From positions 20,424,863 to 20,488,862 of the forward strand of contig NC_134849.1 of assembly GCF_965363235.1 (NCBI RefSeq): DNA of 64,000 nucleotides, given 5' to 3'. This document shows positions 1,225 to 63,657 of this stretch, piece by piece. Both the position numbers and the translations under genes were made by a program. How positions within the stretch are numbered: the stretch's first letter is position 1; each line of letters begins with the position of its first letter. Source of the DNA: Mytilus galloprovincialis. Lineage: Eukaryota; Mollusca; Bivalvia; Mytilida; Mytilidae. The notes under the pieces are model-generated. The model was not told the origin of the DNA, ran no database searches, and was given only the letters and a program-made list of their open reading frames with translations.

Positions 1225-3185
1225 AACTGTTGGAACCAAAACTCCCAAAATCAATCCCAACCTTCCTTTTGTGGTCATAATCCTTGTGTCAAAATTTCAT
1301 AGATTTCTATATACTTAAACTAAAGTTATAGTGCGAAAACCAAGAAAATGCTTATATGGGCCCTTCATGGCCCCTAATTCCTAAACTGTTGGGACCAAAA
1401 CTCCCAAAATCAATCCCAACCTTCCTTTTGTGGTCATAAACCTTGTGTTAAAATGTCATAGATTTCTATTGACTTATACTAAAGTTATAGTGCGAAAACC
1501 AAATGTCTTCGGAAGACGACGCAGACGACGACGCCAACGTGATACCAATATACGACCAAAAAAAATTCAACTTTTGCGGTCGTATAAAACTTAAGAATCT
1601 GAATACACAGTTAGATTTGGCATATCAAAGAACCGCAATAATTTATTTTTTTATGAAATCAAACGAAGTTTCATTTTTGTCCCTTTTGGTCACCAATTCG
1701 TTAGGACCAAAACTCCCCAAATCAATCCAAACCTTCCTTTTGTGGTCATAAACCTTGTGTTAAAATTTCATAGATTTCTATTAACTTATACTAAAGTTAT
1801 TGTGACCATAAAAGGAAGGTTGGGATTGATTTTGGGAGTTTTGGTCCCAACAGTTTAGGAATAAGGGGCCCAAAGGGTCCAAAATTAAACTTTGTTTGAT
1901 TTCATCAAAAATTGAATAATTGGGGTTCTTTGATATGCCAAATCTAACTGTATATGTAGATTCCTAATTTTTGGTCCCGTTTTCAAATTGGTCTAGATCT
2001 ACATTAAGGTCCAAAGGGTCCTTCGGGTTCTTTGATATGTTGAATCTAAAAATGTACTTAGATTTTTGATTATTTGCCCAGTTTTCAAGTTGGTCCAAAT
2101 CGGGGTCCAAAATTAAACTTTGTTTGATTTCATCAAAAATTGAATAATTGGGGTTCTCTGATATGCCAAATCTAACTGTGTATGTAGATTCTTAATTTTT
2201 GGTCCCGTTTTTAAATTGGTCTACATTAAAATCCAAAGGGTCCAAAATTAAACTAAATTTGATTTTTCACAAAAATTGAATTCTTGGGCTTCTTTGATAT
2301 GCTGAATCGAAACATGTACTTAGATTTTTGATTATGGGCCCAGTTTTCAAGTTGGTTCAAATCAGAATCCAATATTATTATATTAAGTATTGTGCAATAT
2401 CAAGAAATTTTCAATTGCACAGTATTCAGCAATAGCAAGAAATCTTCAATTGCACAGTATTGTGCAATAGCAAGAAATTTTCAATTGCACAGTATTGCGC
2501 AATAGCAAGAAATCTTCAATTGCACAGTATTGTGCAATAGCAAGTATTTTCAATTGCACAGTATTGCGCAATAGCAAGAAATATCTAATTGCACAATATT
2601 GCGCAATAGCAAGAAATTTTCAATTGGAGTTATCTTTTTTGTCCAGAATAGTAGTTGAATCAACTTAAATCATTGTTTTATACAATATACAATGTATATT
2701 CACTTTTACTACCAACTGATAAATTACAACAATCTTTACAATTCATTGATAACAAGCACTTTTTTTACATTTTAATATTTTATGCTGTATTTAAATGAGT
2801 AGTTATTATTGCAAACTCCATTAGAAATTTGAATTGAGACTAGTTTTGGAATAAGGGTAAGGGACATGTGAAAAAAAAATTGGGTGGGGGGAGGTTCATT
2901 TTTTTCTCATTTCAGATTTCATAAATAAAAAGAAAATTTCTTCAAATATTTTTTTAGGGAAATAATATTAAACAGCATAGTGAATTGCTCAAAGGCAAAA
3001 AAAAAATTTTAAGTTCATTAGACCACATTCATTCTGGGTCAGAAACCTATGCTGTGTCAACTATTTAATCACAATCCAAATTTAGAGCTGAATCCAGCTT
3101 GAATGTTGTGTCCATACTTGTCCCAACTGTTCAGGGTTCAACCTCTGCGGTCGTTTAAAGCTGCACCCTGCGAAGCATCTGGTTT
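1225..3185. repeat. Large interspersed repeat, copy 1
   Basis: This block opens with several imperfect copies of 'ccaaaactcccaaaatcaat...ccttccttttgtggtcataa' in both orientations. It continues with repeated 'ggttctttgatatgc(c/t)gaat' modules and a 35-bp tandem array, and ends near 'gcggtcgtttaaagctgca'. The same ordered modules recur at 7550-9762 (interrupted), 10337-10717 and 10718-11680, so this is a dispersed family with defined ends. The acidic ORF at 1503-1751 lies wholly inside the repeat; I do not regard it as a gene. No transposase was seen, so the family looks non-autonomous. Confidence 0.75.
2390..2628. repeat. 35-bp tandem array with TTGCGCAAT palindromes
   Basis: Starts of the unit (CAATTGCACAGTATTG...) at 2412, 2447, 2482 and 2517 show an exact 35-bp period, about seven units in all. 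Many units carry ATTGCGCAAT or ATTGTGCAAT. The array is an internal part of the surrounding interspersed repeat and recurs at 10905-11185. Confidence 0.85.
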
Positions 3186-4350: not shown

Positions 4351-6015
4351 TCATTTAGATGAGAAATTGAACTTTGTCAGGTTTTTGCCTACGACATCAC
4401 ATATAAAACCTGAAGATTCACAATGTTTCAAACAAATACATCTAGGACACTCCAGTCCATCACTAAGCAGTACTTTACTCTCCTTTCCATCTTTTGATAT
4501 AACTATTATTCTATTAGAATCTCTATCTGCTACAATAATGTTACCATTAGTATCTGTACAAAGTCCCCTTGGTTCTGATAAATCCTGTGTATATCTCCAG
4601 ATCTGTTTACCTGATCGATCAACACAGTATACTGCTTTACCATAATAGTCACTATAGATTACTCTGTCATTACAGTAAACAAAGTAATTTAGGTTTGATT
4701 CACACTTAACTTGTATGGACTTTAGTGTATTTCCTTCTAAGTCTATAATACGGATTTCATCATCACTCAAACCTACAACAAGAGAATCATCTGTTGATGA
4801 TAATCCCCAGCATTGTTTGTCTAATGTGATAACTTTGGTTACTGTTTCATTCTCCATATTGAAGATCTTAATGGCATTCTCTCTAGGATAAGTTACGGCA
4901 ATAGTGTCCTCATTGATCTGTGTAACACTCCAGACTTGACCAGGTATAGGTAAGTTTTTCAGTAGTTTGCCATCAGGAGTAAGTAGGTTAACTTTGTTTA
5001 ACCATTCCACTATTATAAGTCTTCCATCCATCAGACAAATCATGTCATTGATATTTCCAATGTTGATCTCTATATTTCTCTCAATGTTGATGGTCATGTT
5101 GTTTATGTTTGATTGTTCTTGTGATTCTACTTGTGCTTCCCTTCTCACACCTGTTTCTGTATTCAAATCCATATCTGATTTCACAACAGTTAATTCTCCT
5201 AAGGATCCTAACTTTTTTATTATCTTTTCAGTTTCATTGTTTTTCTCCATTTTGATGTTAAATTCTTTTGCCCTGTCGTCTTTGTCCAGATCATCTATGT
5301 ACCGTTGGCATTGATGTACTTGTTGTTCAATCTGATGTACAACTAGAAATGATTTGAGTTTTGAGGCATGGGGTATGACTGTATGTAGTTGGTCTTGCAT
5401 TTTCTTTAAGTTTTTCTGTTTTCCTTCAATTTCAGCTATTAAATCTGTGGCTTTTGATTTTTCCTGATTCAAGATGGTATCTGCTTCTTGGTAGATCTTC
5501 TTCTCTAGGTGGGTTAAATGTTCATCTATTTCATTGCGTATTTTTACAATGAATTCCTTAATGCTTTTATGTTCTTGTTCTCCTCTTTTAATGTTTTGTG
5601 ATTTGTTATTTACAATTTTATCTAAGATATGTAAGATGGAATTGACATCTTTCTCTACTGATTTTTTCTTTTTTTCAATCTTGGTTATTTCCACAATGCT
5701 AGCTAAACTTTTTATTCCCATACACTTTGAATGACTATTGGAAATACATTCATCACAGCAAGGCATTAAATGACTCGGGCAATATAAGTTGAGCTGTTGA
5801 CCATGTTTGTCACATTCTGTTTTGATAGCTCGGACAGAAGGGTTATAACTTTTAATATCAACAGTCGTATGATCACGTGACAATCTATATCTTTTGTGAT
5901 GACCAGAACATGTTGAACACAATCCTTCATCACAGTTGTAACACCAGATGTCAGCTTTAGTGGTAACTTTTCCTTCTATACAAGGTCCACATGGAATAGG
6001 TTTACTGGATGCCAT
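4351..6015 (-). CDS. RING-less TRIM-like protein: two B-boxes, coiled coil, NHL-type propeller
   Basis: Encodes 554 residues from the start MASSKPIPCGPC. Seen: a B-box 1-like zinc motif (C9, C12, C25, C28, C33, C36, H39/H40, H49) and a B-box 2-like motif (C68, H71, C79, H82, C86/C87, C90, H95). A long Lys/Glu-rich coiled coil covers about 110-275, then a charged linker, then from about 325 a series of beta-strand repeats ending WxYTxDLSxPRGLCTDxNGNIIVADxxSNRI, typical of NHL-type six-bladed propellers. There is no RING finger upstream of B-box 1. An open frame adds 12 residues upstream, but these are preceded by TTTTCAG directly before GTCATGG. I therefore take 6018 as a splice acceptor and 6013-6015 as the true start; a 5' UTR exon should lie further upstream. 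Such proteins are greatly expanded in bivalves. Without a RING, ligase activity is unlikely, and a role as scaffold or RNA/protein binder in the cytoplasm is inference. Confidence 0.88.
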   Translation of the reverse strand: MASSKPIPCGPCIEGKVTTKADIWCYNCDEGLCSTCSGHHKRYRLSRDHTTVDIKSYNPSVRAIKTECDKHGQQLNLYCPSHLMPCCDECISNSHSKCMGIKSLASIVEITKIEKKKKSVEKDVNSILHILDKIVNNKSQNIKRGEQEHKSIKEFIVKIRNEIDEHLTHLEKKIYQEADTILNQEKSKATDLIAEIEGKQKNLKKMQDQLHTVIPHASKLKSFLVVHQIEQQVHQCQRYIDDLDKDDRAKEFNIKMEKNNETEKIIKKLGSLGELTVVKSDMDLNTETGVRREAQVESQEQSNINNMTINIERNIEINIGNINDMICLMDGRLIIVEWLNKVNLLTPDGKLLKNLPIPGQVWSVTQINEDTIAVTYPRENAIKIFNMENETVTKVITLDKQCWGLSSTDDSLVVGLSDDEIRIIDLEGNTLKSIQVKCESNLNYFVYCNDRVIYSDYYGKAVYCVDRSGKQIWRYTQDLSEPRGLCTDTNGNIIVADRDSNRIIVISKDGKESKVLLSDGLECPRCICLKHCESSGFICDVVGKNLTKFNFSSK

Positions 6016-6182
6016 GACCTGAAAATTTCCAAGATAGAAATTATTTTGCATTCTTGTCGATGTCCAAATAGTTAATGGTGAATGGATAATGATATTTGGC
6101 CAGAAATGACCAATGTAAAAAAATTCAAAGGAGAAAACTTAACAAACTGATTTATGGACAAAAAATGAACGAAAGCAAATAT

Positions 6183-10717: not shown

Positions 10718-11680
10718 TGGGCCTGTTTTCAAATTGGTTTACATTAAGGTCCAAAGGGTCCAAAATTAAACTTAGCTTAATTTTACCAAAAATTGAATTC
10801 TTGGGGTTCTTTGATATGCTGAATCTAAACATGTACTTAGATTTTTGATTATGGGCCTGGTTTTCAAGTTGGTCCAAATCGGGGTCCAAATTATTATATT
10901 AAGTATTGTACAATAGCAAGAAATTTTCCATTGCACAGTAATGCGCAATAGCAAGAAATCTTCAATTGCACAGTATTGTGCAATAGCAAGAAATTTTCAA
11001 TTGCACAGTATTGCGCAATAGCAAGAAATCTTCAATTGCACAGTATTGTGCAATAGCAAGAAATCTTCAATTGCACAGTATTGCGCAATAGTAAGAAATA
11101 TCGAATTGCACAATATTGCGCAATAGCAGGTATTTTCAATTGCACAGTTTTGCGCAATTCCAAGAAATATTCAATTGCACAGTATTGTTCCGTTTTCAAA
11201 TTTGTCTACAATAAGGTCCAAAGGGTCAAAAATTAAACTTTGTTTGATTTAAACAAAAATTAAATATATTGGGTTCATCGATATGCCGAATCTAACCATG
11301 TATTTAGATTTTTAATATTTGGGCCCGGTTATCAAATTGGTCCACATTGAGGTCTAAAGGGTCTAAAATTGAACATTATTTGATTTCATCAAAAATTGAA
11401 TTCTTGGGGTTCCATGATATGCTGATTCTAACCATGCATTTAGATTATGGATATTGGACCATACTAGGTAAATGTCCAATTTAAAATTTTTAAGTTTTTA
11501 AGTTTAATTTCTTAGACCACATTCAATCTGTGTCAGAAACATATGTTGTGTCAACTATTTAATCACAATCCAAATTCAGAGCTGTATCAAGCTTAAATGT
11601 TGTGTCCATACTTGCCCAAACTGTCCAGGGTTCGACCTCTGCGGTCGTATAAAGCTGCGCCCTGTGGAGCATCTGCGGAG
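10718..11680 (+). repeat. Large interspersed repeat, copy 3, with 35-bp array
   Basis: The modules 'ggtccaaagggtccaaaattaaact' and 'ggttctttgatatgctgaat' are followed by a 35-bp tandem array at about 10905-11185. The copy then ends in the family's terminal 'tctgcggtcgtataaagctgc' at about 11640-11675. It is left-truncated. The reading frames here (10665-10954 minus) are repeat-derived. Confidence 0.75.
10905..11185. repeat. 35-bp tandem array, second occurrence
   Basis: Seven to eight units of CAATTGCACAGTATTGCGCA-type sequence. This is the same array as at 2390-2628, carried by another copy of the same repeat. Confidence 0.85.
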
Positions 11681-31596: not shown

Positions 31597-32277
31597 ACTT
31601 TAAAAGATCCCGTCAGTATGATATTGTTCTATTATATGTCATTATGATATATTTCTATTATGAATTACAATATACGTTGAACCACAAACGTCAAAATCAT
31701 TCAATCAAGTAGTGGAACTAGCTATTTGTGGATTTTTATAAATTCTATATATAACTTTTGGACTAGTTTAAATCTCGGTCTATTTCTGAAATTTATTCTT
31801 CCCTATTTTTGATTTTTTAACCCTGTATGCTAACATTGCCTATGTAAATTTTAAAATTGTTTGTATGCACATTGATCAACAAATCTATGTGACGTAAACA
31901 AAATATTCTGACGTCAGACACACACACCAATGAATGTGTTTGTAGATAGTAGATGTTTTTGTGTTCTGTCAAATTGTTTCTTTTAAAATTGTTATACGAT
32001 GATGACTGATGTACCCATATTTTGACTAGTTAACGCATCAATGTAAATATAACGGAATTTGATGAGACTGTCATTAAAGTGAGAGGGTTAGCGCTATAAA
32101 ACTAGGTTAAATCCACCATTTTCTACATTTGAAAATGCCTGTACCAAGTCAGGAATATGACAGTTCTTGTCCATTCGTTTTTGATGCGTTTTGTTATTTG
32201 ATTTTGCCATGTGATTATGGACTTTCCGAATTGATTTTCCTCTTAGTTCAGTATTTTTGTGATTTTACTTTTTGGTA
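31597..32277. repeat. Insertion between the two parts of the retroelement remnant
   Basis: In the copy at 50.3-51.1 kb the flanking sequences are contiguous ('gtgctgctggaatgttgctacttagaaatgg'). Here they are separated by 680 bp. The right part of the insert (about 32125-32275: 'ctgtaccaagtcaggaatatgacag', 'ttgttatttgattttgcca', 'gactttccgaattgattttcctc') resembles the inverse of about 38775-38865, so it carries another dispersed repeat. Confidence 0.6.
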
Positions 32278-33174: not shown

Positions 33175-33545
33175 AGTTAGTGGAGGTTAGCGCCTTCAAA
33201 CATGTTAACCCCAGCACAATCTATATATGATATTATATTTGCCTTTCCAAAGCTAGGTCAAAAGTCATAAGTTTAATATTGAGCATCGATTGTTAGCAAG
33301 TGTTTGTCGTTTGTTTGCAAATGTGGTTGACATGATTTTCGTTGATACATGTCTGTCAATTTTTGTTTTTCGTAAAATAATTGTTTTGTTCTAGATAAGG
33401 CTGTTATTTTTCTCACTTGCATATAATATATTTTATTCCTTTTATAGGCAACTATACAGTATGAGTTTTTCTCATTGTTGAAGCCCTAAAGGATTATAAA
33501 ATATAATTGCTTACATCCATTTCATGTACACTTTGGTGGAATTAA
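33175..33545 (+). repeat. Common interspersed repeat, long diverged copy
   Basis: Starts 'gttagtggaggttagcgccttcaaacatgttaacccc', continues 'gtgtttgtcgtttgtttgc' and 'ccttttataggcaactatacagtatgag', and ends 'ctcattgttgaagccc'. It shows the family's 5' portion, which is absent from most other copies here. Confidence 0.65.
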
Positions 33546-34122
33546 GGATCGTGTTAAGATATCCCCGAACTTTTCACGCCTCACTTTTTTTGTATCAGAA
33601 ATATCATTTTGAGTTTAATTCGCAGATAGGTCATGTAGGTTTTTTTTTCAAATGAGGCATTACCCCGATAGAGATAATAATGTATAATCTTACAAACAGA
33701 ATCATCTTTATTTGAAAAATTTAGTTGTAATCTTTCTAACATAAAGTCGCCTGTAATAATAAAAAAAAACCATTTCGTTTTTGAATACTGCAGTATTCTT
33801 AAACAGTAAAGGTAATACTGATATTAAATATTGACTGCTGTTTTTCTCCGCCATTTTCTGTTGACATGTTGATGTGTGTTGTTCGTCATCTTATTATGTT
33901 TGATCTGTACGAATGCATTAATACAAAGGCTTAAAAGTACCAGTCATCCTGAGCACGAAAAAGTACTTTGGTTTAACAGATCACTTTTATCTAATTTTAT
34001 TTGCACGATTCAATATTTAAAAATAGAAGCGTAACATTGTACTATTGCTATGAACATGATGAAATTTAAATAACAATTAACTTTTAAATACCTAAAAGAC
34101 TAAATGGGTTGATTTCGATAAC

Positions 34123-34137
34123 GAAAGTGGAAATTCC
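34123..34137 (+). promoter_or_regulatory. Composite IRF/kB-like motif, unit 1
   Basis: GAAAGTGGAAATTCC, in the context 'cgataacgaaagtggaaattcctgttgg'. GGAAATTCC fits an NF-kB/Rel core and GAAAGTGG fits an IRF half-site. The unit lacks a clear donor downstream. Confidence 0.45.
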
Positions 34138-36246
34138 TGTTGGATTCGATCCATTATTTTTGTTTACAAAATACCAATTAATTTCTATTCCGTTATATAT
34201 TTGGGTTTTCCCTTATCTATTTCTATCTTTAGTAAATTTCTTTTTTCACATGTTCTTTAACATGTTTATTAGAAACAGTCTCTCACACTAAAAATAAAGA
34301 TTTATATGCACCGACCATGCAGTTTACATGTACATTGATAGATTGGGGCGACATGGAAATATATATTTTTTAAGATTTGTACGATGAAAATCGAAAAATT
34401 GTTAGATGCATGTCTTTTCAATAATTGTCTTACCTTAATGCAGCATATAATTAAACATTGTTTCCCTCTGTTAAAGTGGATACATGTTATTTGTTTTGAC
34501 AAAATTTCGAAGTTACATATAACAAAATGGCGACCAAATAATTTTCAAACCGGTAGACGATGTTCGACACTTATTTTGCACATGCAAATAATTCAATAAG
34601 ATTTAACTGTTTGTATTGCAATTAAATATGACACGTTAACTTATTGTAACTCGTATGATAATTAAGGATAAAGCTAGATTGTGGAGATATTAATTAATTA
34701 AAGTCATCAACGTGATCAAAGAAAACAAACATGGCAACGTGGCCTTATCACGATGTACGTTTTGATTAGACCTAATATATATATTAGTATTTTACGATTG
34801 TTTATGAAATCATTTTATTATAATATTCTATATTAACAAAAGGAAACCACGGATGGATGGTAACAAAGATGAAATATCTATATATTATATATTTTTTAAA
34901 ATCATTACACGGGTAACCAGTACATTTTACATAATCCTAATTAAACCAGTCACATACAGAGTTATCGAACCTAATTATGACTGGAATAGTTGCATATGGT
35001 TAGTTATACTTAAGCACATATATATTCGAAAACAGTATTAAATACTTTTTGTAACATTTTTTGATTGTTTTTTGTAGATTGTTGAGGCAACCTTTTTAGT
35101 TTATTCAAAAAAGAGGACTTATTCCGAGATGTGGACTGTATTTACACAATTACAAACATTTGTAATTTGTTATCATTTGATAAACATGTATTGAAAGTAT
35201 TTTATATTATATAAAAAAGAATGGTCATCGTGCCTGACAAGTTCTAAAACTAGTGTTTTAGTTATTTATATTATGAATGAGATAAGAAACAGATTGGGCC
35301 GAGGTATATAGAAATTATATAGTCTAGTACATAAATAATTTATGTTCGTTTGAACGAAGAGAATTTAGAAAATAATGTTCACTTATGTTTTTTCCCCGTT
35401 TTCTTCTGTTGACATGTGATGTTCGATGTCTGTCATTTTGGTGTATTCGATCTATATAAATTCATTAATAAAAGTTGTATACAATATTCTTCACAAAATG
35501 AACATAATTAATATCGTAAAACAATTAATTTTAAATTATAATATATTTCACTGCGTCATACTGATACGAAATTAAAATCAAGGTAAAACAAAAATACAAA
35601 ACCCTAAGGTAACTTATTATTTCTTATTATTAAAGATTAGCTGGTATTATGCCTTCCGTCATTCTCTCTTTTCTTGCTTCTGTCCGGTATTTGTCGTCTT
35701 TTGCCGTTTTATATCGACTTCTCTTAAATTCTACTTATTTAAAGCGTACACCGTTTGAACAATTGAACAATATGATATAGTAAACATTACGACGACATAC
35801 TGTTTTTGTTTTTCTATCTCCCAGTTTTTCTATCGAAATATGTAAATGTTATCATCATGATTATAAATGGACTGTTGTTTCTCTCTCCGTTTTTGTTGAT
35901 GACATGTTGATCTTCGATGTTCGTCATCTTGGTGTGTTTGATGTTAAAAGAATGCATAAATACAAGACAAAACAGAGCGAGTCAGATTTATGACAAAAGC
36001 GTACTTTGTTTCAACAATTTATTTGTGAGTGCGGGTTTTTTTCCTTCTAAATTTATAAGTATGATTCAATATCTAAAAATAGTTTCGCAGTTTCATAGTT
36101 TATTAAAGAAAACTCAGCCGCAAAAGACTGCGTAACAGGAGCATATTAATAAGTGTTACATTGCAATAATGATATAAACTTTAAATTACAATTAATTTTT
36201 GAAAGCCTCAGGAAATGATTTGGTCAATTTCGATAACGAAACATGC

Positions 36247-36261
36247 GAAAGTGGACATTCC
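36247..36261 (+). promoter_or_regulatory. Composite IRF/kB-like motif, unit 2
   Basis: GAAAGTGGACATTCC, with one change in the kB core relative to unit 1. The donor-like aaag|gtaagt follows at 36325. Confidence 0.4.
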
Positions 36262-37252
36262 TGTTGGATTCGATGCAAGCGTCCATTTATTTTAAAATTT
36301 TATTAGGATTATATTGTAGCAAAGGTAAGTTTATTTTTTTTATTAAATATTCTTCACAAAATGGACTTAATTTATATCGTTAACAATTAGGTTTAAATTT
36401 TAATTTATTTCACTACTTCATCATGTTCATACTGAAACAAAAAAACAAAAACAAACCAAAACAACACATCCCTAGGTAACGTAAATAAGAGAGGTCTATA
36501 AAAACTTACAAAACCAAACGTTAGACTTTATGATCCAACAAAACGATTGAAAAAACATTGTAGTAATCCTGACTGCTTCAAATTTATATGATAATGTTGA
36601 AAAAATCAATCTTAAAATTTACAACTATAAGACTCTTGCAACAAAAAAGAGCATTTCTTTGTTTTTTTAATAATCATTTGTTATAATGGCATGCATGGTT
36701 AGAAGAAAAAAAATTCTAAACATAAATCTAAATCATAATATTAAATTGTATTTCATTATTCATTATGAACTGGTATTATTCCTTCCATCATTCTATCTTT
36801 TCTTGCTTCTGTCCGTTATAATTAATAAGTCAACTTTTGCCGTTTCATATCAACTTCTCCTAATTTTACTTATTCAAAGTGTACACCGATTAAACAATAT
36901 AGTCAAAATTTTGACGACATAATGTTGTTTGTTTTTCTATCGCCTAGATTTGCTTTCTAAATATGTAAATGTCATTATAATGATCATATATTGACTATTG
37001 TTTCTCTTTCTATTCATTTCGCCATCGTAGTGTGTTTCATCTTAACGAGTGCATACATACAAGGCTAAACAGAACAAGTCTTCTTTAGGACAAAAGAGCA
37101 CTTTGTTTCAACAATTTATTTTTTGAGTGTGGTTTTTTTCTTTCTATATTTATAAGTATGATTCAATATCTAAAAATAGAAATGTAACATAACAACCATG
37201 ATATAAACTCTAAATCACAATTGACTTTTGAATGCCTCTCAATTTCGATAAC

Positions 37253-37267
37253 GAAAGTGGAACTTCT
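37253..37267 (+). promoter_or_regulatory. Composite IRF/kB-like motif, unit 3 (degenerate)
   Basis: GAAAGTGGAACTTCT. The IRF half is kept and the kB core is altered. The donor-like caaag|gtaagg follows at 37328. Confidence 0.35.
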
Positions 37268-37828
37268 TGTTGGATGCGATCCAAGCGTATATCTTTTAAA
37301 TACCTGTAAGCTTATATTGTAGCAAAGGTAAGGTTAAATTTGATTAAATATTCTCCAAAAAATAAACATGATTTATATCTTTTCCCATTACATATCCACT
37401 TCTCTTAAATTTTCATTATTTAAAGCGACTCAATAATAAATAAATACACCGTTTAAACAGATTAGTTAACATAATGACGACATAATGTTGCTAGTTTTTC
37501 TATCGCCTAGTTTTCTACCTAAATATGTAAATGTTATCATCATGATTATATATGGGTTATTGTTTCTTTTTATCTTTCTTTCGTCATCTTGGTGTGTCTG
37601 ATATTTAAAAAATGCATAAATACAAGGCTAAACAGAACGAGTCAGCTTTAAGACAAAAGATTACTTTGTATCAACAATCTATTTTTGGGTACTGGTTTTT
37701 CTTCTTTTAAATAAGTATAATTATAAGTATGATTCAATATCTATAAATAGAAGTATAACATAGCAATAATGATACCAAATTTAAATTACAATTAACTTGT
37801 GAATTCCCCAGGGAATAATTTTGATTAC

Positions 37829-37843
37829 GTAAGTGGAAATTCC
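37829..37843 (+). promoter_or_regulatory. Composite IRF/kB-like motif, unit 4
   Basis: GTAAGTGGAAATTCC. The kB core is perfect and the IRF half is changed at one base. The donor-like caaag|gtaagg follows at 37919. Confidence 0.4.
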
Positions 37844-38584
37844 TGTTGGATGCGATCCAAGCGTCCATTTTTTAAACATGTTAAATACCAATAAGCTTAT
37901 ATGCAATTTGTAGCAAAGGTAAGGTTTATTTTATTAAATATATTTCACAAAATGGACATGATTTATAACGTAAACAATTACTTCTAACGTTTAATTTATA
38001 ATACTGAAACGATATATAAAAAATGAATAACAAAAATAACGAACTCCCAAATAACTTAAAGATATTTATAAAAACTATCTAATCAAACGTTAGACTTTAC
38101 CATGTTAACAATCCAACGTAAGAATTGTTATAATCCTGACCGCATCAGATTGATATGATAATGTTGCAGAAATCAATACTCACTACTGTAAGACTCTTGC
38201 AAAATGAAAGAGGGTTTTGTTTGTTTAAGTAATCATCATCTTATTCTTTACACAAAGTTTACACAGAACGAGCAAATTATAGATAATAGTATGACGAAAT
38301 ATTGTTATGTTTGTTTTTTCCATTATCAAGCTTTGTATCTAAGTATTTTTACAGCATTAGAAAATGTTTCAACACAATTCTTTGTTCAAATGGTTAAAAC
38401 GCATTTTAAAAATATCAATAATATGGACTTTTTCTCTCTATGCTTGTCATTGTTAAGTAAAACTTTGTTTTTGTTAAAAGTTCTAAAAATAGATGTGTAC
38501 TATAGCGATAAGAATAGAATACTTAAATAACAGCGACATTTTGAATACAAAAAAAAAAAAAATGACTTGGCTAATTTTAATATC

Positions 38585-38599
38585 GAAAGTGGAAATTCC
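38585..38599 (+). promoter_or_regulatory. Composite IRF/kB-like motif, unit 5 (nearest the gene)
   Basis: GAAAGTGGAAATTCC, identical to unit 1. TATA-like 'atttatttatatctatac' follows, then a donor-like ctagg|gtaagt at 38659. From there to the acceptor before the coding exon (39324) is 666 bp. Confidence 0.45.
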
Positions 38600-39330
38600 T
38601 GTTTAATTTGATATAAGCGTTCATTTATTTATATCTATACAAGAGTTAAAAAGCTAGGGTAAGTTCTTTGAATACATTTATGTTTTAGATATTTCTGAAA
38701 TTTTACTTTAACAGATATAGTAAAGTTTTCAAAAAGTATACACATCATATACATGTATATACAAAGTAAAAACTCAAAACGGAAAGTCCCTTATCAAATG
38801 GCAAAACCAACATCTCAAACACAGCAAAAAAATGGACAACAACTGTCATATTCCTGACATGGTAAAGTCATTTCATTATTTTAATAATGGTGGATTAAAC
38901 CTGGTTTTTGATAAACCTGTCTTGTGTATGACAGCAATGTGTGAAGAAAACAGACACATAATCGGTGAACATGTAAAAATAGGGGTACAGCAGTAAACAT
39001 GGGGTTACACACTTAAACAGGATGAAAAGCAAATGTGCCAACAAAGATAAGTAAAGAAGACAAAATGTATAAAGACAAAGCAGTTTAGCAAAATGAAACA
39101 CTAATCTACAAAATCATCTCATCTCAAAATAATGCAATGGCAAGATGTAAAAGCAACTAGCCAAGCAAAAAGGATATTTCCAAAAACGGAACACAGTCCA
39201 GGTTAAGAGTTAACAAAGACAAATAAAAGAACACTAAAAAATCGTATTACATTTTGTACTTCATTATTAAGGTAGATTTAAGACATTCCGTGTACGCACA
39301 ATAAATTCAATTTATAACTTACAGGCAAGA

Positions 39331-42300
39331 ATGAATCGGATCTCGAGAAAGGATAAAAAGGATAAAAAGGATAACGATCAAAATGGATTAAGGAAAATAA
39401 CGTACTGGGAAAAATACGGGGTCAAACGTTTTCCTTACCGAGGAAGGCGCAGATACTCACCATGTGTTTACCAATCAGAAGACGGAGGGATCGTTATCTC
39501 AAACGACGTTTTCGGGCTAACAATCAGACAATTTGAACGAATGTTTCAAGCGTGTTTAGACAGACGGAAAGCACAAGAACAGTATATACTAAATCTAAGA
39601 TATCCTGACAAATTGGCAAATGAATATCTGGAATACTTAGATAACAGAAGATATTTGAATGAAGGTAATTGCATTGTTATATTTGTAACTCAATAAACGA
39701 TGTAATACAAATGGAGAAACTGTCTAAAACGGGAAAAAAGGGACTTGACTTTGAATCGAAAACCAAATACAGATAGTTGATACTCTAAACTAATTACTGA
39801 AAAAAACGTGACAAAGGGGCAATCAAGGTTCAAACATAATACAGTTTCATCTTTATTTATCTCTTAAATCTACTCTGTAAGAGACCCTTTGGACACAAAA
39901 CATTGTCAGTTGGTGCATACGTATTTAGGGGTAAAGTGCTTGCTTTGAATTTTGTAGTTTCCTGTCAAAACGCTCTTTTCCTTTCTATACTTTCCGAAAT
40001 CGTTTGCCAAATTTCTGCCTTCTGGACTTAACTGAGCAGTGTGTGAGATTTATTTTTGGCAACTTAGGTAAATTGAGTCATCCTGATTTCAGGTAAAGGG
40101 TTGTATGAAAGTCTGTGAGAATAATAATATTGTAACAAACCTAGGGTTACTATAAACTGTTTAACCATCATTCAGGAGTAGTGAAGTCGACGACAGTGTG
40201 AAGAAACAGATTTGTAATAAACATAACAATGATATTTATTTCAACAGTATTTTGACTTCTTCTTTCAATATAATAAACATCAAATACACATTCATCATTC
40301 AACAGATAAAGCAATAAATCGGGTGGTCAATATAAAAGGTAGTTGACGGTTCAAGAGATTGATTCAGAATGACATGTTTGTCTACAGGCTCCTATTTATG
40401 TCTTTTGGCACTTACTATGTCGTAAGAGTAAACATCTAATCGTCCAATCAAAAGCAACGTCTCATACGTCTTTTGGCTAGTAACGTTTAGAAAGACACAC
40501 AGATTTCGTTATTCTTAGATAAAAAATATTATTAAGTTGTCCTCACTTTGTCCTTCTTGTCCGAATTATGTTTAAAAGCGTATGAAACTAAAAGGACATT
40601 TCTACATAAACGGACAGTAAATTCCTTTCTCGATACGGCGTATGAACTTGGGGGTAATTTACATAACCTTACGCATAAGATATAATGCTTAAATGAGATC
40701 AATGAAAACCCTGTTCTATCATAAATAAAGACAATGTTAATGAAAAGGGAGGCACAAACATAATAAATACGCAATTTACCTGCATTGATAAAGTGTTAAC
40801 TTAAACAAATAATAATATGAGCTCGTAAAGTGAAAGTACAAAACGGTGTCATGGCAGATGTAAACAAGTTGAATCGCACGACGATATTTGTCAAAATATG
40901 ACGGGATAATCAAAGTATTTTATAGGTAAACATTACCAAGATATACATATAAAACTGGCCCTTATCGCTTGCAAAGTACAAATAGTTTAAATCAGGAGTA
41001 TGAAAGTCAATGCATTTATCAGTGTTTGTGCACTCTCCAGAAGTTGACCACCCGGCAATATTCAAATAAATGTATGTAATATACAATAAATAATACGTTA
41101 AATAATAACAATTATCAGCCCAGATTTGTCACAATATGCTGACCAGGTAACTGACTGCTTCAAGCCTTCGTTAACTGTATTGAAGAGATTACGCAGTGGC
41201 GGATCCAGAAATTTTCATAAGTGGGGGCCCACTGAAGGCCTAAGAGGGGGGCCGCTCCGGTCACGCTTCTTTGAATCCCTATATAATCAACCAACATTTT
41301 CAGAGAAAAGATAGGGGCGGACCATCTGCTCACCCTTAATCCGCCTCTGAGTTCCAAGAATATTGTAACAAAGTTTTGGTTAGACCTTTCAAATGATTGG
41401 AAGCATAAAGGTTTGCAACAACCACATTCAGCAATGTTTGCATCTTTACTGATTGTGTTGAATTTGACATTTGTATGGTCGATTTGAAGTGCTTTAGCTC
41501 TGATACCTTCTTGGTCGTTTGTTGCTTTCAAAGAATTAAGCATTATCTTGACTTTCGATACATGACTTTATAAGTATCTATTTCAGTCCTTAATTTAATC
41601 CACTGCTTCTGAAATTGATTTTTACTGTGGTCTGTTCTTTTAATGAACAAATGAATTAAACAATAACTTTAAAACGTGAAATATTTAATTCAAAGGGTTT
41701 CGCAGTCAGTTAATACAACACCATGTTTCTTCGCGGCTAAATATTGCGTTTTTTTCTTCTTCAAAAGTTTCTCTACTTGAGCTTACAACCCTGTTAAATA
41801 GTTCATCACAAGGGAAAAAACATGTAAATGTCACATGATTCGATTGATCGAGATCAAAAATTTACATTAACAATATTTTGTAATTAACATGATTAACACA
41901 TGGACAAAGCGGTTGTGATTGTCCTGGATATATAGTATTTGGGCTTTTTCCTTTCATAAGCACACCATTAGACAACTATTGAACATAATAAATCATTTAA
42001 TGTCAGTTCTTGCAATCAACAACATATTATCAGATGCCTTTGTGATTGTACTATTGGTGTCGTTAATTCTTTAGATATGTCGATATTGCGACTTATCAAG
42101 GTTGCTTTCATGTTACATGACAGGGCTTCCAATGCATGTCGCTATTGTTCAACAATTTCTAATGTTTGTATTCCTACCAACAATCTACGAGTTGACCTGT
42201 TTTCACCTTTGAGGTTTTATCTGCGTACTTTCCTGAGGTTAATATAAATATAAACAGAAATGGCATCATTGTGATTGCAGATAAATAATGAAGTTTTAAT

Positions 42301-45300
42301 AGCAACTAAGCATCTTGCATTGAGGTATCATAATCTAAAGCAAAGATAGTATTATTTATTGTTGTTGCAACGTCAATATGGAGTTTGAACAGGCCTGTTT
42401 TGTTCGAATCGCATAATGTGTATCTCGCGGGGACTATGGTGTGCACAATTTATTTTCAATTTCTACTATTACATTATCACTTGTCAAATACAAAATACAA
42501 ACAACATTTATCCGGTCTTTATTTGTGACACTATCCCGTTGTAGAAGTCGCTGTAGGTGCTCATTGTTTTCTCTAAGGGTGCGTAGCATTGGTTACATAG
42601 ACATATTATTATCAAGCAATAATTTTTGATTCTCATCAAACTGGTAGCCAAGCTTAATTGCTGTGTTGTCGTTTTTTACAGCAACCGGATATACTTTGAT
42701 TTTTTTCTGTCTTCACAAGTGATGTAACAGCTTCCAGGGCCAGGTGATAATTCTATAAAGCTTTTATTTTAGGTTTTTAAGAACCTCTTTTTCGTGTCCC
42801 AAACCACATTGAACCTTTAAAATAATGACCGTCTTTTCGCCGCTTAAGTAACCAACAGAATTTTTGAGATATTTATATAAAATACCAGACTTTTGTAAAA
42901 AAAAAATGCGTTTTATGAGGGTACTTAGTCGATTGCAGGCATTATCATCCTTTTCTATTGAAATTGGAAATCTACCGTATATAGATTTCTGTTTTATGCT
43001 AAAACATATGTATTTTCATGATCATTCTAAAACATGTAGGCAATTATCAACAAATCATATCTTAAAAAATAGCACGGTGACACATCTTTTTTATTATATT
43101 TTTGAAAAGAGCATGGCAAAGTATAAGACAATTCTATCTCGGAAAACAGTTATGCGGAATAACAAATGATATCGACTCAATATATGTATCTAATCCCTCT
43201 CAATATGATTACCGGAAACGCTCTTTCGTCATCTCAACTTAAAAAGAATCATTTTGAGGTCTCAGATCTCAAAATAAAATAGCCGGTGGTGTATACATAG
43301 CAGATAGCCTTCACTCTTTCGAACAACCTGTTCTTTAATCTAGCAAATGTTCTCACACTCTAGCGAATGTCCTCAAACTCTAGCAAATGTCCTCACACTC
43401 TAGCAAATGTCCTCAAACTCTATATAATGTCCTAACAGTCTAGCGAATGGCCTCAAACTCTAGAGAATGTCCTAACAGTCTAGCGAATGTCCTCAAACTC
43501 TAGCAAATGTCCTAACAGTCTAGCGAATGTCCTTAAACTCTAGTAAATGTCCTCACACCCTAGCGAATGTCCCCAAACTCTAGAGAATGTTCTTATAATC
43601 TAGCAAATGTCCTCAGTGTGTGTTTGTTTTCTTCTATAATCGTAATCCATTTTCGAGATTTGAACATCGATAAACGACTGTTGCTTTCATACAAATCACG
43701 ACACTAGGCGCCCATTGGTACGAATTGGGCACAGTATTTGTAATTGAATCACAAAAATTCATCATGGTTTTCAAATAAATCATTGAATAAATATATATTT
43801 TATAGATTACTTGTCATGGAGTGGAACTAATTTGAAGGACAAATTCCTATACGAGCACTTAGTAGAGACAGTTGGAACTGAAGAAGACATGCGTAAAAGA
43901 CAGCAACTATTTATCATACAAGACGTGATAGAAAATACTGATTCAAAATGTACACAAATATCCAGTGGCAGTTTAGCAGAAGGACTCGATTTACAAGGTA
44001 GTGACCTGGATCTCATGTTGGTCTTCAACAACGTAGACGTAGACGTAATACAGGATTTAAGGAATATGAGACACCCAGTGCAACGTACAACATTGTTAAT
44101 GGAGACAGATACTGATCATCCTGGATTTAGAAGACTCCGATTGATAGCAGGAGCGAATAGGGAAAATGATCTTTTAACATATGAATACTTTGAAAGTACT
44201 AGTAAAGGTTTATGTTTATCAGTGAACAAATTTGTTGGTAATATAAAAAAGTCTACGAAACAGCAGCATCTATCAACACACGGCCCGTGTGTATCAGATC
44301 AACAAGGGACCATTGATATTGCATACTGCCTTAGAAGCAAATATTTACCGTACAGTATAATATCATGGGCATTGCGTTATCGACAACAATGGCCACCTAA
44401 TTCTACAATTGACAAAATTAAACAATACGGATGTTTACTAGTACCCATTGGACCAAGAACTATCCCAGACTGTAATATATTATGGAGATTATCTTTCTCT
44501 GTAGCAGAAAAACAACTTGTTCATTCGTTTAATTTCACTCAGCTGTTATGTTACTGTCTCCTCAAATTAACGTTAAAACTAATTATTAACACAAACAAAC
44601 ATGTCGACGGTTTATTGTGTTCTTACTTTCTGAAGACGGCTTTATTCTGGGTCTCAGAGGAGGTAGATATTGACACGTTTCAAATATCGAAATTATTTGT
44701 TTGTTTTTCTCACTGTCTAAATAAATTGATATCATGGGTAAAGAAGTGTTATTGTCCGAATTATTTTATACCTGAACACAACATGTTCCTAGGAAAAGTC
44801 AATTCAGATAATAATACAATACTGCTAATTGTTTTGTATGGCATAAAATGCGATGGAATTGACGGATTAACAAAACATTTATTTCCGAACGACAATGGAA
44901 GTTTATTAGGATCAAATAGTGATTTTTCGTTAATTAAGTTAGACTTTCTCTTTTACAGAATATGTTTCATGAGTAATATGTTAGACATATCACAATGTTT
45001 AAAGACACTCATGTGTATTGAATCTTTAATCAAGTCCAAATATGCTACATTTATTATTGAAGTATGTAACCATTATCACGCTGTCATAAGTCAATTTGCA
45101 GCACAATTACTACCACCACCTACAATAACGAGTGAAACTTACAACATACACAAACATTATCATAGACTTTTAATAGACGGTACAAAGGCAGATGCTGTTT
45201 CGGGTTGGTTGTTATACGCCTCGTTTTATTATGTAACAGGACAGTATAATGTAACACTCAGAATAACGGAATATGTTTTGTCAAGATGTTCATCTGGTAT

Positions 45301-45769
45301 GTTGTTCATTGGATGTTCAACCTACAGTGAAGATGATAAACTTGATTATAGAAATAAGGTACATTCTAAAATGACACTGAATGAAAAGATGCGAACAGCT
45401 ACTATAGGTTATGTTCGTTACTTACGGAACTCATCATTAATACCAAGGGAACTACAGCTGGAAGTGAATGAAGGGCACATGTTAATAACACCGACTGTTA
45501 TGTCTCACTGTCTTATATTTCTATGTTATCATCATCTTGGAAACATATCAAACAGGCAACAAGCTTTAAATGATTTATACTTAACAATAAAAAATAGGAA
45601 TTTTATTTGTTCAGATACGTTATCTAATTCATTAACAATTCTTGGAGTATGCTTTGAGATATCCGGTGACAAGGATACTGCCTTTCAGTGTTATGATTAT
45701 GCTTTACAATGTAATGATGTAACATGTTCCTCTGCAGCAGCGAGAAAATCCAAACTTTTAGAAATTTAA
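39331..45769 (+). CDS. cGAS-like receptor (Mab-21 family nucleotidyltransferase), 2 coding exons
   Basis: Exon 39331-39664 (donor gaag|gtaatt) and exon 43806-45769 (acceptor attttatag) join in phase (G+AT = Asp) and give 765 residues. Residues 1-111 are a basic extension (KKDKKD, WEKYGVKRFPYRGRRRY, FGLTIRQFERMF) that I cannot assign. The nucleotidyltransferase core has GSLAEG at 166-171, GSDLDLML with D178 and D180, and TIDIAYCL with D282: the full acidic triad of active cGAS/OAS-fold enzymes. PIGPRTIPD, then WRLSFSVAEKQLVHSFN at about 338, opens the Mab-21 helical half (to about 460; LLCSYFLKTALFW). The C-terminal 300 residues are helical and repeat-like. Known relatives sense nucleic acid in the cytosol and make cyclic dinucleotides for STING. 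The zinc loop of vertebrate cGAS is not evident, so the ligand is open. The start follows acceptor acttacag by six bases, so a 5' UTR exon is expected. AATAAA lies at 45821. Confidence 0.85.
40320..41053. mobile_element. Possible inverted-repeat element
   Basis: The left end is CGGGTGGTCAATATAAAAGG and the reverse complement of the right end reads 'gccgggtggtcaacttct'. Only about 11 bp match, so this is weak. The inside is AT-rich with no transposase. Confidence 0.3.
41194..41349. mobile_element. Short MITE, hAT-like ends
   Basis: The left end is CAGTGGCGGATCCAGAAATT and the reverse complement of the right end is CAGAGGCGGATTAAGG. CAGTGGCG-type ends are typical of hAT-derived MITEs. The 8-bp flanks do not match well, so it is old. 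It is 156 bp long. Confidence 0.65.
43339..43618 (+). repeat. 20-bp minisatellite, about 14 units
   Basis: Unit TCTAGCGAATGTCCTCAAAC with variants at a few positions (cacac, aacag). The register is an exact 20 bp throughout. It lies inside the intron, ending about 190 bp before the acceptor of the catalytic exon. Confidence 0.95.
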
Positions 45770-51309: not shown

Positions 51310-51738
51310 ATATACTTCAAGTTCATCTAACGAAAGATTTAGGACATTTTTTTGAAATTTAAGTGTCTATGTCAATTGATTCAATTAGTTTGTGTGAAAT
51401 AATTTAACTGATTAAGTATTTAAAAACGCACCGATCTATGCTTAAATTTGAAAAATCTATCACTTTTCAGTTGTTTTTTGGCAAAAATAAAAATTGCCAC
51501 ATTCGTGTTCATCCTCAACCTTTATATATATTATGTATTATCATCATATACAACTTACATTTCAATATTATGAATGATCACGAAAGCAGCCACTTTCATT
51601 TAAGACGGAAACCGTCTATAATTTGAAAATAAATGCTAAAATTGTGACGTTCAGTAGTTTATCATGACTTAATGATGCTAGTACCCGATATCTGTGCATT
51701 TTTGTGTCAAAAACAGCACATAATTTTGTAGCAGAATC
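51310..51738 (+). mobile_element. 'GGAGTAGGT' family element, partial inverted copy
   Basis: 'cgaaagatttaggacattt' to 'gtacccgatatctgtgcatttttg...agcagaatcatt' is the reverse complement of about 61985-62425. The terminal repeats themselves are missing. Its right edge abuts the cGAS-like gene fragment. Confidence 0.75.
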
Positions 51739-51739
51739 A

Positions 51740-52050
51740 TTCTTCTTCCTTAAATAGCTAAATGATTTGAAATTGTGGGTTAAGAAGTGTTACTGTCCAA
51801 ACTATTTTATACCTTTACACAACATGGTCTTCGAAAAGGTAATTTCAGATAATACTACAATACTGCTAAATGTGTTGGAAGGCATTGATAAAATACTTAA
51901 ATCCGAATAACAAAAAAATTCTCGTTTCTTAAGAATCAATAGTGAATTTTCGTTCATTAAGCTATACCTTCTCTTTTACAAAATAAATGTATTGGAGTTT
52001 CCATAAGACAAATCAAAATGTTTAGAGGCACTTATAACAAGGTATTAAAA
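51740..52050 (+). pseudogene. Decayed fragment of a second cGAS-like gene
   Basis: Aligns by eye to 44715-45025 of the intact gene. 'gggttaagaagtgttactgtccaaactattttatacct' matches 'gggtaaagaagtgttattgtccgaattattttatacct'. 'cagataatactacaatactgctaaatgtgtt' matches 'cagataataatacaatactgctaattgtttt'. 'agtgaattttcgttcattaagctataccttctcttttac' matches 'agtgatttttcgttaattaagttagactttctcttttac'. Stops and small length changes break the frame. The fragment covers part of the Mab-21 helical half only (about residues 415-518). No intron or exon border is included, so duplication by DNA or by retrotransposition cannot be told apart. Confidence 0.85.
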
Positions 52051-62949: not shown

Positions 62950-63657
62950 AATGCCACTGCTGGTGGACATTTCGTCCCCGATGGTATCTCCAGCCCAGTA
63001 GTCAACATTTCGGTGGTGACATGAATATCAATAATGTGGTCATTTTTATAAATTTCCTGTTTACAAAACTTTGAATTTTTCGAAAAACTAAGGATTTTCT
63101 TATTCCAGGCAAGGCATAGATTACATTATCAGTATTTGGCACAACTTTTTGGAATTTTGGATCCTCAATGCTCTTCAACTTTGTACATGTTTGTGTTTAT
63201 CAATATTTCGATTTGAGGGTCACTGATGAGTCTTCTGTAGACGAAACGCGCGTCTGGCGTACTAAATTATAATCCTGGTACTTTTGATAACTATTTAAAC
63301 AACTGGGTCGATGCCACTGCTGTTGGACGTTTCTTCCCCGAGGGTATCACCAGCCCAGTAGTCAGCATTTCGGTGTTGACATGAATATCAATAATGTGGT
63401 AATTTTTATAAATTTCCTGTTTACAAAACTTTGAATTTTTCGAAAAACTAAGGATTTTCTTATTCCAGGCAAGGCATAGATTACCTTAGCAGTATTTGGC
63501 AGAACTTTTTGGAATTTTGGATCCTCAATGCTCTTCAACTTTGTACATGTTTGGCTTTATCAATATTTCGATTTGAGCGTCACTGATGAGTCTTATGTAG
63601 ACGAAACGCGCGTATGGCGTACTAAAATATAATCCTGGTACTTTTGATAACTATTGA
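62950..63657 (+). repeat. 360-bp tandem duplication
   Basis: Two head-to-tail copies start 'atgccactgctg(g/t)tggac' at 62951 and 63311 and differ at only a few positions. Each ends 'agacgaaacgcgcgt(c/a)tggcgtact' and 'aatcctggtacttttgataactatt'. It looks like a satellite-type dispersed repeat. A diverged inverse of its end lies at 32965-33020. No gene was seen from 63658 to the end. Confidence 0.92.

What the first reader, a model, noticed from the sequence alone, without database searches (positions are those of the whole stretch)
33830..38665. Tandem promoter-like units with an interferon-beta-enhancer-like IRF/NF-kB composite motif upstream of a cGAS-like gene
Seen: five same-direction diverged units, each with GAAAGTGGAAATTCC or a variant at 34123, 36247, 37253, 37829 and 38585. 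Four are followed 58-76 bp later by a splice-donor-like GGTAAG (36325, 37328, 37919, 38659). They stop just before an acceptor (39324) that precedes the start codon of a cGAS-like gene. Established: in the human IFNB1 enhancer the PRDI and PRDII sites lie side by side as GAAAGTGGGAAATTCC (from memory), one G different. Inference: each unit is a promoter plus short non-coding first exon under joint IRF and Rel control, giving the gene several inducible starts. The motif and donor are among the better-kept parts of units whose other sequence has diverged.
Basis: partly seen in the sequence, partly recalled or inferred. Interest (0 to 1): 0.88.

Follow-up and report, generated by a model that had tools for sequence, protein, structure and literature searches.

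The report
Tandem promoter copies before immune gene
Upstream of an animal immune-sensor-like gene, the stretch that probably holds its promoter and first exon has been copied about six times, and the best-preserved piece looks like a binding site for NF-kB-type immune regulators, but only the copy nearest the gene is still complete and nothing here shows that any copy is used.

Summary
Five motif copies lie where stated, four are followed 59-75 bp later by consensus splice donors, and the array ends before an intact Mab-21/cGAS-like gene. It is a tandem array of six diverged units (one lost its core), with no further copy found in the 64 kb (BLAST, E 1e-3). In all-five-unit rate tests the slowest stretch is 20 bp at the motif, or 40 bp around it (rate 0.15-0.5 of average, p 0.002-0.037); this weakens if U1 is dropped. 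The interferon-beta-enhancer reading is only half supported. A 9-bp kB site is present in 4 of 5 units and GGANNTTC half-sites in 5 of 5. The IRF half lacks AANNGAAA and GAAANNGAAA in all 5, and one base is missing against human PRDI-PRDII. Only U5, next to the gene, combines an exact motif with a donor. Best reading: a duplicated promoter/first-exon region with a conserved Rel-type site, one or two copies probably still usable. Joint IRF control and several inducible starts are unproven. No transcript data and no genome of this animal could be searched, so a dispersed repeat is not excluded.

The parts
33806..34165 (+). Unit U1: head of the unit and an exact motif; no donor, no tail
35374..35616 (+). 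Unit U1b: sixth copy, head joined to tail; A/T block, motif and donor deleted (junction about 35474/35475)
   Evidence: 33827-33926 vs 35374-35473; 35475-35616 vs 36338-36483
35618..36677 (+). Unit U2, the fullest copy (about 1.06 kb)
36749..37377 (+). Unit U3, tail truncated where U4 begins
37378..38236 (+). Unit U4
38248..38680 (+). Unit U5, nearest the gene and most diverged (60-64% to the others); only unit with exact motif and donor
34123..34137 (+). Motif, U1, GAAAGTGGAAATTCC
36247..36261 (+). Motif, U2, GAAAGTGGACATTCC
37253..37267 (+). Motif, U3, GAAAGTGGAACTTCT
37829..37843 (+). Motif, U4, GTAAGTGGAAATTCC (GAAA lost, kB 9-mer intact)
38585..38599 (+). Motif, U5, GAAAGTGGAAATTCC
38580..38619 (+). 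Slowly evolving block as placed in U5 (20-column peak 38584-38603); the part beyond 38603 is not significant alone
   Evidence: rate 0.2-0.3, p 0.002-0.012; 38606-38620 alone p 0.56
38483..38492 (+). A/T block CTAAAAATAG (TATA- or MEF2-like, recalled consensus), in register in five units (34017, 36073, 37170, 37741, 38483); conservation not significant
   Evidence: p 0.16-0.43; p 0.073 without U5
36325..36330 (+). Splice donor, U2, AAG|GTAAGT (9 of 9)
37328..37333 (+). Splice donor, U3, AAG|GTAAGG (8 of 9)
37919..37924 (+). Splice donor, U4, AAG|GTAAGG (8 of 9)
38659..38664 (+). Splice donor, U5, AGG|GTAAGT (8 of 9)
39325..39664 (+). Exon after acceptor ACTTACAG, with start codon at 39331
43806..45769 (+). 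Main coding exon of the Mab-21/cGAS-like gene (765 aa with the previous exon, frame-consistent)

Best explanation
The 5' flank of a Mab-21/cGAS-like gene (probable promoter, short non-coding first exon and start of intron 1) was tandemly duplicated several times long ago. Shown: six tandem diverged units, none found elsewhere in the window, a block at the motif that evolves slower than the rest of the unit, and donors at a near-constant offset in four units. Inferred: the block is a regulatory core whose GGAAATTCC part binds a Rel-homology factor (NF-kB/Rel, or NFAT5/TonEBP). Inferred: U5, next to the gene, is the working promoter and splices its leader exon from 38659 to 39325. Inferred: U2 may be a second start, and U1, U3 and U4 are decaying copies or extra kB sites. 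IRF co-binding is possible but weakly supported by the sequence.
For: Tandem structure: 34 non-self BLAST rows at E 1e-3, that is 17 in-array pairs and 0 rows outside; U5 head and core homologous to U2, U3 and U4. Constraint: block at rate 0.2-0.3, bootstrap p 0.002-0.012 over five window sizes (400 simulations each, so 0.002 is the floor). The peak stays at an overlapping place with another alignment, with the securely aligned part only and with five-base columns only (p 0.003-0.037). The end units U1 and U5 are 60% identical yet share an unbroken 20-mer at the motif (permutation p 0.002). All 3 exact GGAAATTCC on + in the window lie in units and none is on -. A donor of 8 of 9 or better falls in a given 40 bp with probability 0.011 outside the array, and U5, the most diverged unit, still has one. 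Gene: Mab-21_C E 5.8e-12 and Mab-21 E 1.2e-5, both above cut-off; best PDB matches are cGAS-like receptor 1 (E 3.8e-9).
Against: No transcript or binding data. The constraint test weakens without U1 (p 0.113 at 20 columns, 0.047 at 40), and without U5 the 20-column peak moves to the A/T block (p 0.073). Plain column permutation is weaker (p 0.006-0.15 over all columns, 0.09-0.37 in the part where U5 aligns securely). The looser kB patterns are common: GGRNWTTCC 9 on + (4 at motifs) and 6 on -, GGANNTTC 18 on + (5 at motifs) and 17 on -. One of six units lost the core outright and U1 lost the donor. The exon from 39325 lies in a frame open from 39271, so the gene does not need an upstream exon. 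The acceptor's pyrimidine tract is modest (10 of 16).
Confidence: 0.5

Rival explanations
1. One reading: each unit is an inducible promoter under joint IRF and NF-kB control, an interferon-beta-like composite, giving the sensor gene several starts in a feed-forward loop.
For: One-base difference from human PRDI-PRDII in 2 of 5 units; 0 such matches in 60 first-order Markov windows. Oyster IRF2 and IRF8 activate the human IFN-beta promoter in HEK293T cells (PMC5557890, passages). Oyster cGAS mRNA rises 13-fold after poly(I:C) (PMC8218723, passages).
Against: AANNGAAA and GAAANNGAAA at 0 of 5 motifs. U4 lost GAAA. Exact motif plus donor in 1 of 5. PMC4743414 (start of abstract's listing) calls the enhanceosome so rigid that slight distance changes lose function, and one base is missing here; the same paper's passages report that most of its genome-wide factor pairs sit 1 bp tighter than in the enhanceosome, though NF-kB formed none of them.
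Confidence: 0.15
2. Dispersed repeat or satellite: the unit is a transposable or repeat family that happens to lie here, and the block is part of that element.
For: The window has many tandem repeats (21 rows); inverted repeat arms flank the array (32098-32247 and 38761-38908). The animal's genome could not be searched.
Against: 0 unit matches elsewhere in 64 kb. Units are joined in tandem at differing breakpoints, as tandem duplication gives. No Rfam match in 33500-39400 reached its gathering score (1 match up to E 1, at E 0.8, not at the block). 0 exact matches to the 24-base block pattern in the viral and prokaryote collections, which says little for an animal repeat.
Confidence: 0.15
3. 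Decayed 5' ends of a gene cluster: units are promoter stubs of lost paralogues or neutral duplications, and the block's constraint reflects past use or chance.
For: A decayed paralogue fragment with in-frame stops lies on the same strand at 51692-52036 (E 3e-20; 3e-19 over a shorter stretch). Bivalve cGLRs radiate to more than 200 in some genomes (PMC9980059, passages). 4 of 6 units have a changed or missing motif (U1b, U2, U3, U4), and 2 of 6 have no donor.
Against: No clear coding remnant in any unit: the one tblastn hit inside the array, on the - strand, is weak (E 1.1; 0.055 without composition correction). The U2 tail matches the gene's intron only weakly (best E 0.002 with loose scoring). 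The constraint test points to selection lasting after duplication.
Confidence: 0.2

Closest known systems
Human/mouse IFNB1 enhancer, PRDI-PRDII
   Same: GAAAGTG directly followed by a kB site ending GGAAATTCC; 15 of 16 bases in order in U1 and U5
   Different: One G missing, so no GGGRNWYYCC 10-mer; no AANNGAAA core; the human PRDIII sequence is not in the 60 bp upstream of any motif; here repeated in units with donors, upstream of a sensor gene and not a cytokine; changed kB part in U2 and U3
Tandem alternative promoters / alternative first exons (known from general knowledge)
   Same: Several similar start-like units, four with a donor, upstream of one shared acceptor
   Different: No transcript evidence; one unit complete, others decayed
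Promoter tandem duplications carrying a factor site, e.g. TERT promoter duplications in cancers (PMC9481613, start of abstract in the listing)
   Same: Duplication multiplies a core promoter piece with a factor-binding motif
   Different: Those are found in tumours; this array is old (units 60-83% identical)
cGAS-like receptors (cGLRs) of bivalves
   Same: Mab-21 nucleotidyltransferase and C-terminal domains; acidic residues DLDL and IDI
   Different: SSGS in place of [QT]GS, 99 residues in place of 50-90 between acidic motifs, long C-terminal extension, and a 111-aa N-terminal exon without a Pfam match at E 0.01

Membership tests
IFNB1-type PRDI-PRDII composite | GAAAGTGGGAAATTCC in sequence | tested here: not met
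   2 of 5 units within one edit; exact in none
IFNB1-type PRDI-PRDII composite | IRF core AANNGAAA (recalled consensus) | tested here: not met
   0 of 5 in -20..+45 of the motif; ISRE GAAANNGAAA also 0 of 5; GAAANNNGAAA in 2 of 5
IFNB1-type PRDI-PRDII composite | virus- or ligand-induced, IRF and NF-kB bound | not testable with these tools
   no expression or binding data
NF-kB/Rel site | kB sequence | tested here: met
   9-mer GGRNWTTCC in 4 of 5 units, GGANNTTC in 5 of 5; 10-mer GGGRNWYYCC in 0 of 5; TonE TGGAAANNYNY in 3 of 5 (consensus patterns recalled). Binding not tested
Tandem promoter / first-exon array | homologous units in tandem on the gene's strand | tested here: met
Tandem promoter / first-exon array | donor in each unit | tested here: inconclusive
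   4 of 6 units at the homologous place
Tandem promoter / first-exon array | transcription starts and splicing to the shared acceptor | not testable with these tools
   no transcript data
cGLR | Mab-21 family domains | tested here: met
   PF20266 (46.1 vs 24.1 bits) and PF03281 (25.9 vs 24.1) above their cut-offs
cGLR | active-site pattern h[QT]GS-X8-20-[DE]h[DE]h-X50-90-h[DE]h (PMC9980059) | tested here: not met
   SSGS, gap 10, DLDL, gap 99, IDI: two departures, acidic residues present; cGAS-like by domain family, strict pattern failed
Transposable repeat | copies dispersed in the genome | tested here: inconclusive
   none elsewhere in 64 kb; genome not held

The most novel reading that the evidence does not exclude
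A mollusc-type cGAS-like sensor gene carries, by convergence, an interferon-beta-enhancer-like IRF/Rel composite multiplied in a tandem promoter array, so that the pathway's own transcription factors raise the amount of the sensor from several starts.
Probability: 0.13. Interest if true: 0.8.

Novelty: new member of a known kind. Interest (0 to 1): 0.42.

Why it matters
Some bivalves have very large cGLR families (PMC9980059, passages), and my few searches brought up no account of how single members are switched on. A slowly evolving Rel-type site inside a duplicated 5' region gives a concrete, testable candidate for induction of such a sensor by its own pathway, and a case of promoter duplication as a source of regulatory variety.

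Tried and rejected
Coding origin of the block: rejected; from motif to donor, one of three frames is open in U2 (0 stops), but all three frames hold at least one stop in U3, U4 and U5. Cassette exon: rejected by reading; the CAG upstream of the motif in U2 and U4 has no counterpart in U1, U3 or U5. Structured RNA: one chance-level Rfam match, not at the block. Donor conservation as separate evidence within U2-U4: dropped (318 of 435 columns invariant, so a 16-bp run is not surprising). A/T block as a second constrained element: not significant, though it leads the 20-column scan when U5 is dropped (p 0.073). Chance resemblance to the human 16-mer alone: 2 hits against 0 in 60 simulated windows, but the motif was picked after the fact from many known motifs, so I give it little weight. 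Relatives of the gene or block in other collections: none found in the viral and prokaryote contigs (in stretches matched a peptide pattern and none was confirmed by tblastn); by their description these hold no animal genomes, so the absence says nothing. No structure prediction was run.

Literature: 'cGLR' with 'Mytilus' gave 0 papers; 'cGAS-like', 'bivalve', 'promoter' gave 1, unrelated by title and not read; the mussel IRF promoter search gave 3, seen as a listing only; some searches were used as listings, apart from the papers cited with passages. The exact 15-mer turned up in one paper of the held library, as an EMSA probe in a Xenopus study (PMC3723657, passage); that this is the IFN-beta element with a base dropped is my guess.

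One pattern (GGANNNTTC) was mis-spaced and found nothing; GGANNTTC was counted instead. The 40-column window is significant, but 38606-38620 alone is not (p 0.56).
Full report
What is there. The stated motif copies are at the stated places: 34123 and 38585 exact, 36247 and 37829 with one mismatch, 37253 with two, all on +. With three mismatches allowed the window total (6) is ordinary (13 of 100 shuffles reach it). With at most one mismatch it is not (4 against 0.007 expected from base composition). Since the five are copies of one ancestor they count as one event. On the + strand the window has 21 such donors, 16 of them outside the array. A further one at 35609, in the tail of the sixth unit, has no place in the model.

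Structure of the array. A self-search of 33800-38760 against the whole window (E 1e-3) gave 34 non-self rows, that is 17 pairs, all inside the array and none elsewhere. From 35374 on the copies run in tandem: a sixth, core-deleted unit U1b (35374-35616), U2 (35618-36677), U3 (36749-37377), U4 (37378-38236) and U5 (about 38248-38680; its head was shown by a looser search). U1 (33806-34165) lies 1.2 kb upstream of U1b. U2-U4 are 80-83% identical to one another, U1 is 67-69% and U5 61-64% identical to them, and U1 and U5 are 60% identical to each other. This looks like old tandem duplication with differing breakpoints, not a set of element insertions with common ends. It cannot be told here whether the unit also occurs elsewhere in the genome, because none is held.

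Is the motif better kept? I fitted one tree and one rate to the five aligned units and looked for slow windows, with 400 parametric simulations per window size (lowest possible p 0.002). The only significant peak is 38584-38603 in U5 coordinates (20 columns: rate 0.20, p 0.005), with 38580-38619 at 40 columns (rate 0.30, p 0.002); over the five window sizes p was 0.002-0.012. The part downstream of the motif, 38606-38620, is not significant alone (p 0.56). With 300 simulations each, a different alignment, the securely aligned part only, and columns with all five bases gave an overlapping place with rates 0.15-0.5 and p 0.003-0.037. Dropping U2, U3 or U4 kept p at 0.010 or below. Dropping U1 gave 0.113 (20 columns) and 0.047 (40). 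Dropping U5 moved the 20-column peak to the A/T block (0.073) and left the 40-column peak at the motif (0.007). A cruder column permutation gave p 0.006-0.15 over all 242 five-base columns and 0.09-0.37 in the secure 122. In the same of 15 motif columns were invariant against 86 of 227 others (Fisher p 0.008), or against 50 of 107 in the secure part (p 0.048). U1 and U5 share one unbroken 20-mer, CGAAAGTGGAAATTCCTGTT (permutation p 0.002); their next longest is 10. The claim for the donor does not stand on conservation within U2-U4; it rests on U5, the most diverged unit, still having a donor at the matching offset (chance about 0.011 per 40 bp).

What the block could bind. The human and mouse enhancer does read GAAAGTGGGAAATTCC (PMC10308904 and PMC4743414, passages). 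Two of five units are within one edit of it; 60 first-order Markov windows held none. The kB half is credible: GGRNWTTCC in 4 of 5 units, GGANNTTC in 5 of 5, and all 3 exact GGAAATTCC on + in the window lie in units, with none on -. The looser patterns also occur elsewhere: GGRNWTTCC 9 on + and 6 on -, GGANNTTC 18 on + and 17 on -. NFAT5/TonEBP is an alternative Rel-family reader: its recalled consensus fits 3 of 5 units, and TonEBP binds human PRDII (PMC11476177, passages). The IRF half is weak: the AANNGAAA core present in the human element is absent in 5 of 5, as is GAAANNGAAA, and U4 has GTAA in place of GAAA. An A/T block CTAAAAATAG or close variant lies in register upstream in all five. 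If it acts as a TATA box the motif would lie inside the first exon; if not, the start lies between motif and donor. This was not resolvable.

The gene. The exon 39325-39664 and the exon 43806-45769 join in frame to 765 aa. The larger exon carries Mab-21 and Mab-21_C, and its best solved relatives are named cGAS-like receptor 1 (E 3.8e-9 and 1.2e-8). The published active-site pattern (PMC9980059, passages) is missed in two places (SSGS; 99 residues between acidic motifs), while DLDL and IDI are present. 'cGAS-like' is fair by family; activity is unproven. A decayed paralogue fragment lies at 51692-52036.

Mechanism. I think most likely a duplicated promoter/first-exon region with a Rel-type core; U5 works, U2 may, and the rest decay or add binding sites. 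All of this paragraph is inference. Supporting background: oyster IRF2 and IRF8 can drive the human IFN-beta and ISRE reporters (PMC5557890, passages), and oyster cGAS is induced by poly(I:C) (PMC8218723, passages); both concern other genes in another species. A dispersed repeat or decayed stubs together take about 0.35.

Noticed in passing
window 51692-52036 (+): Decayed second Mab-21/cGAS-like fragment, 45% identical over 133 aligned positions with in-frame stops: local paralogue loss.
   Followed up: partly
window 32098-32247 and 38761-38908: Inverted repeat arms, two pairs (81% and 73% complementary), perhaps element copies; the second lies inside the putative first intron between the U5 donor and the acceptor.
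   Followed up: no
window 34123-34170, 37253-37300, 37829-37876: Right after the motif, TTGGATGCGATCCAA is an inverted repeat in U3 and U4, part-kept in U1 and U2 and lost in U5 (read); unexplained.
   Followed up: partly
window 43339-43615: 20/40-bp tandem array about 190 bp upstream of the main coding exon.
   Followed up: no
window 2386-2626 and 10902-11187: Nearly the same 35-bp satellite unit at two places, each beside a 136-bp-period repeat.
   Followed up: no
window 62951-63655: Two 360-bp tandem copies, 95% matching, likely a recent duplication.
   Followed up: no
window 4351-6138 (-): 595-aa open frame with an NHL match above cut-off and B-box matches below it, TRIM-like.
   Followed up: no
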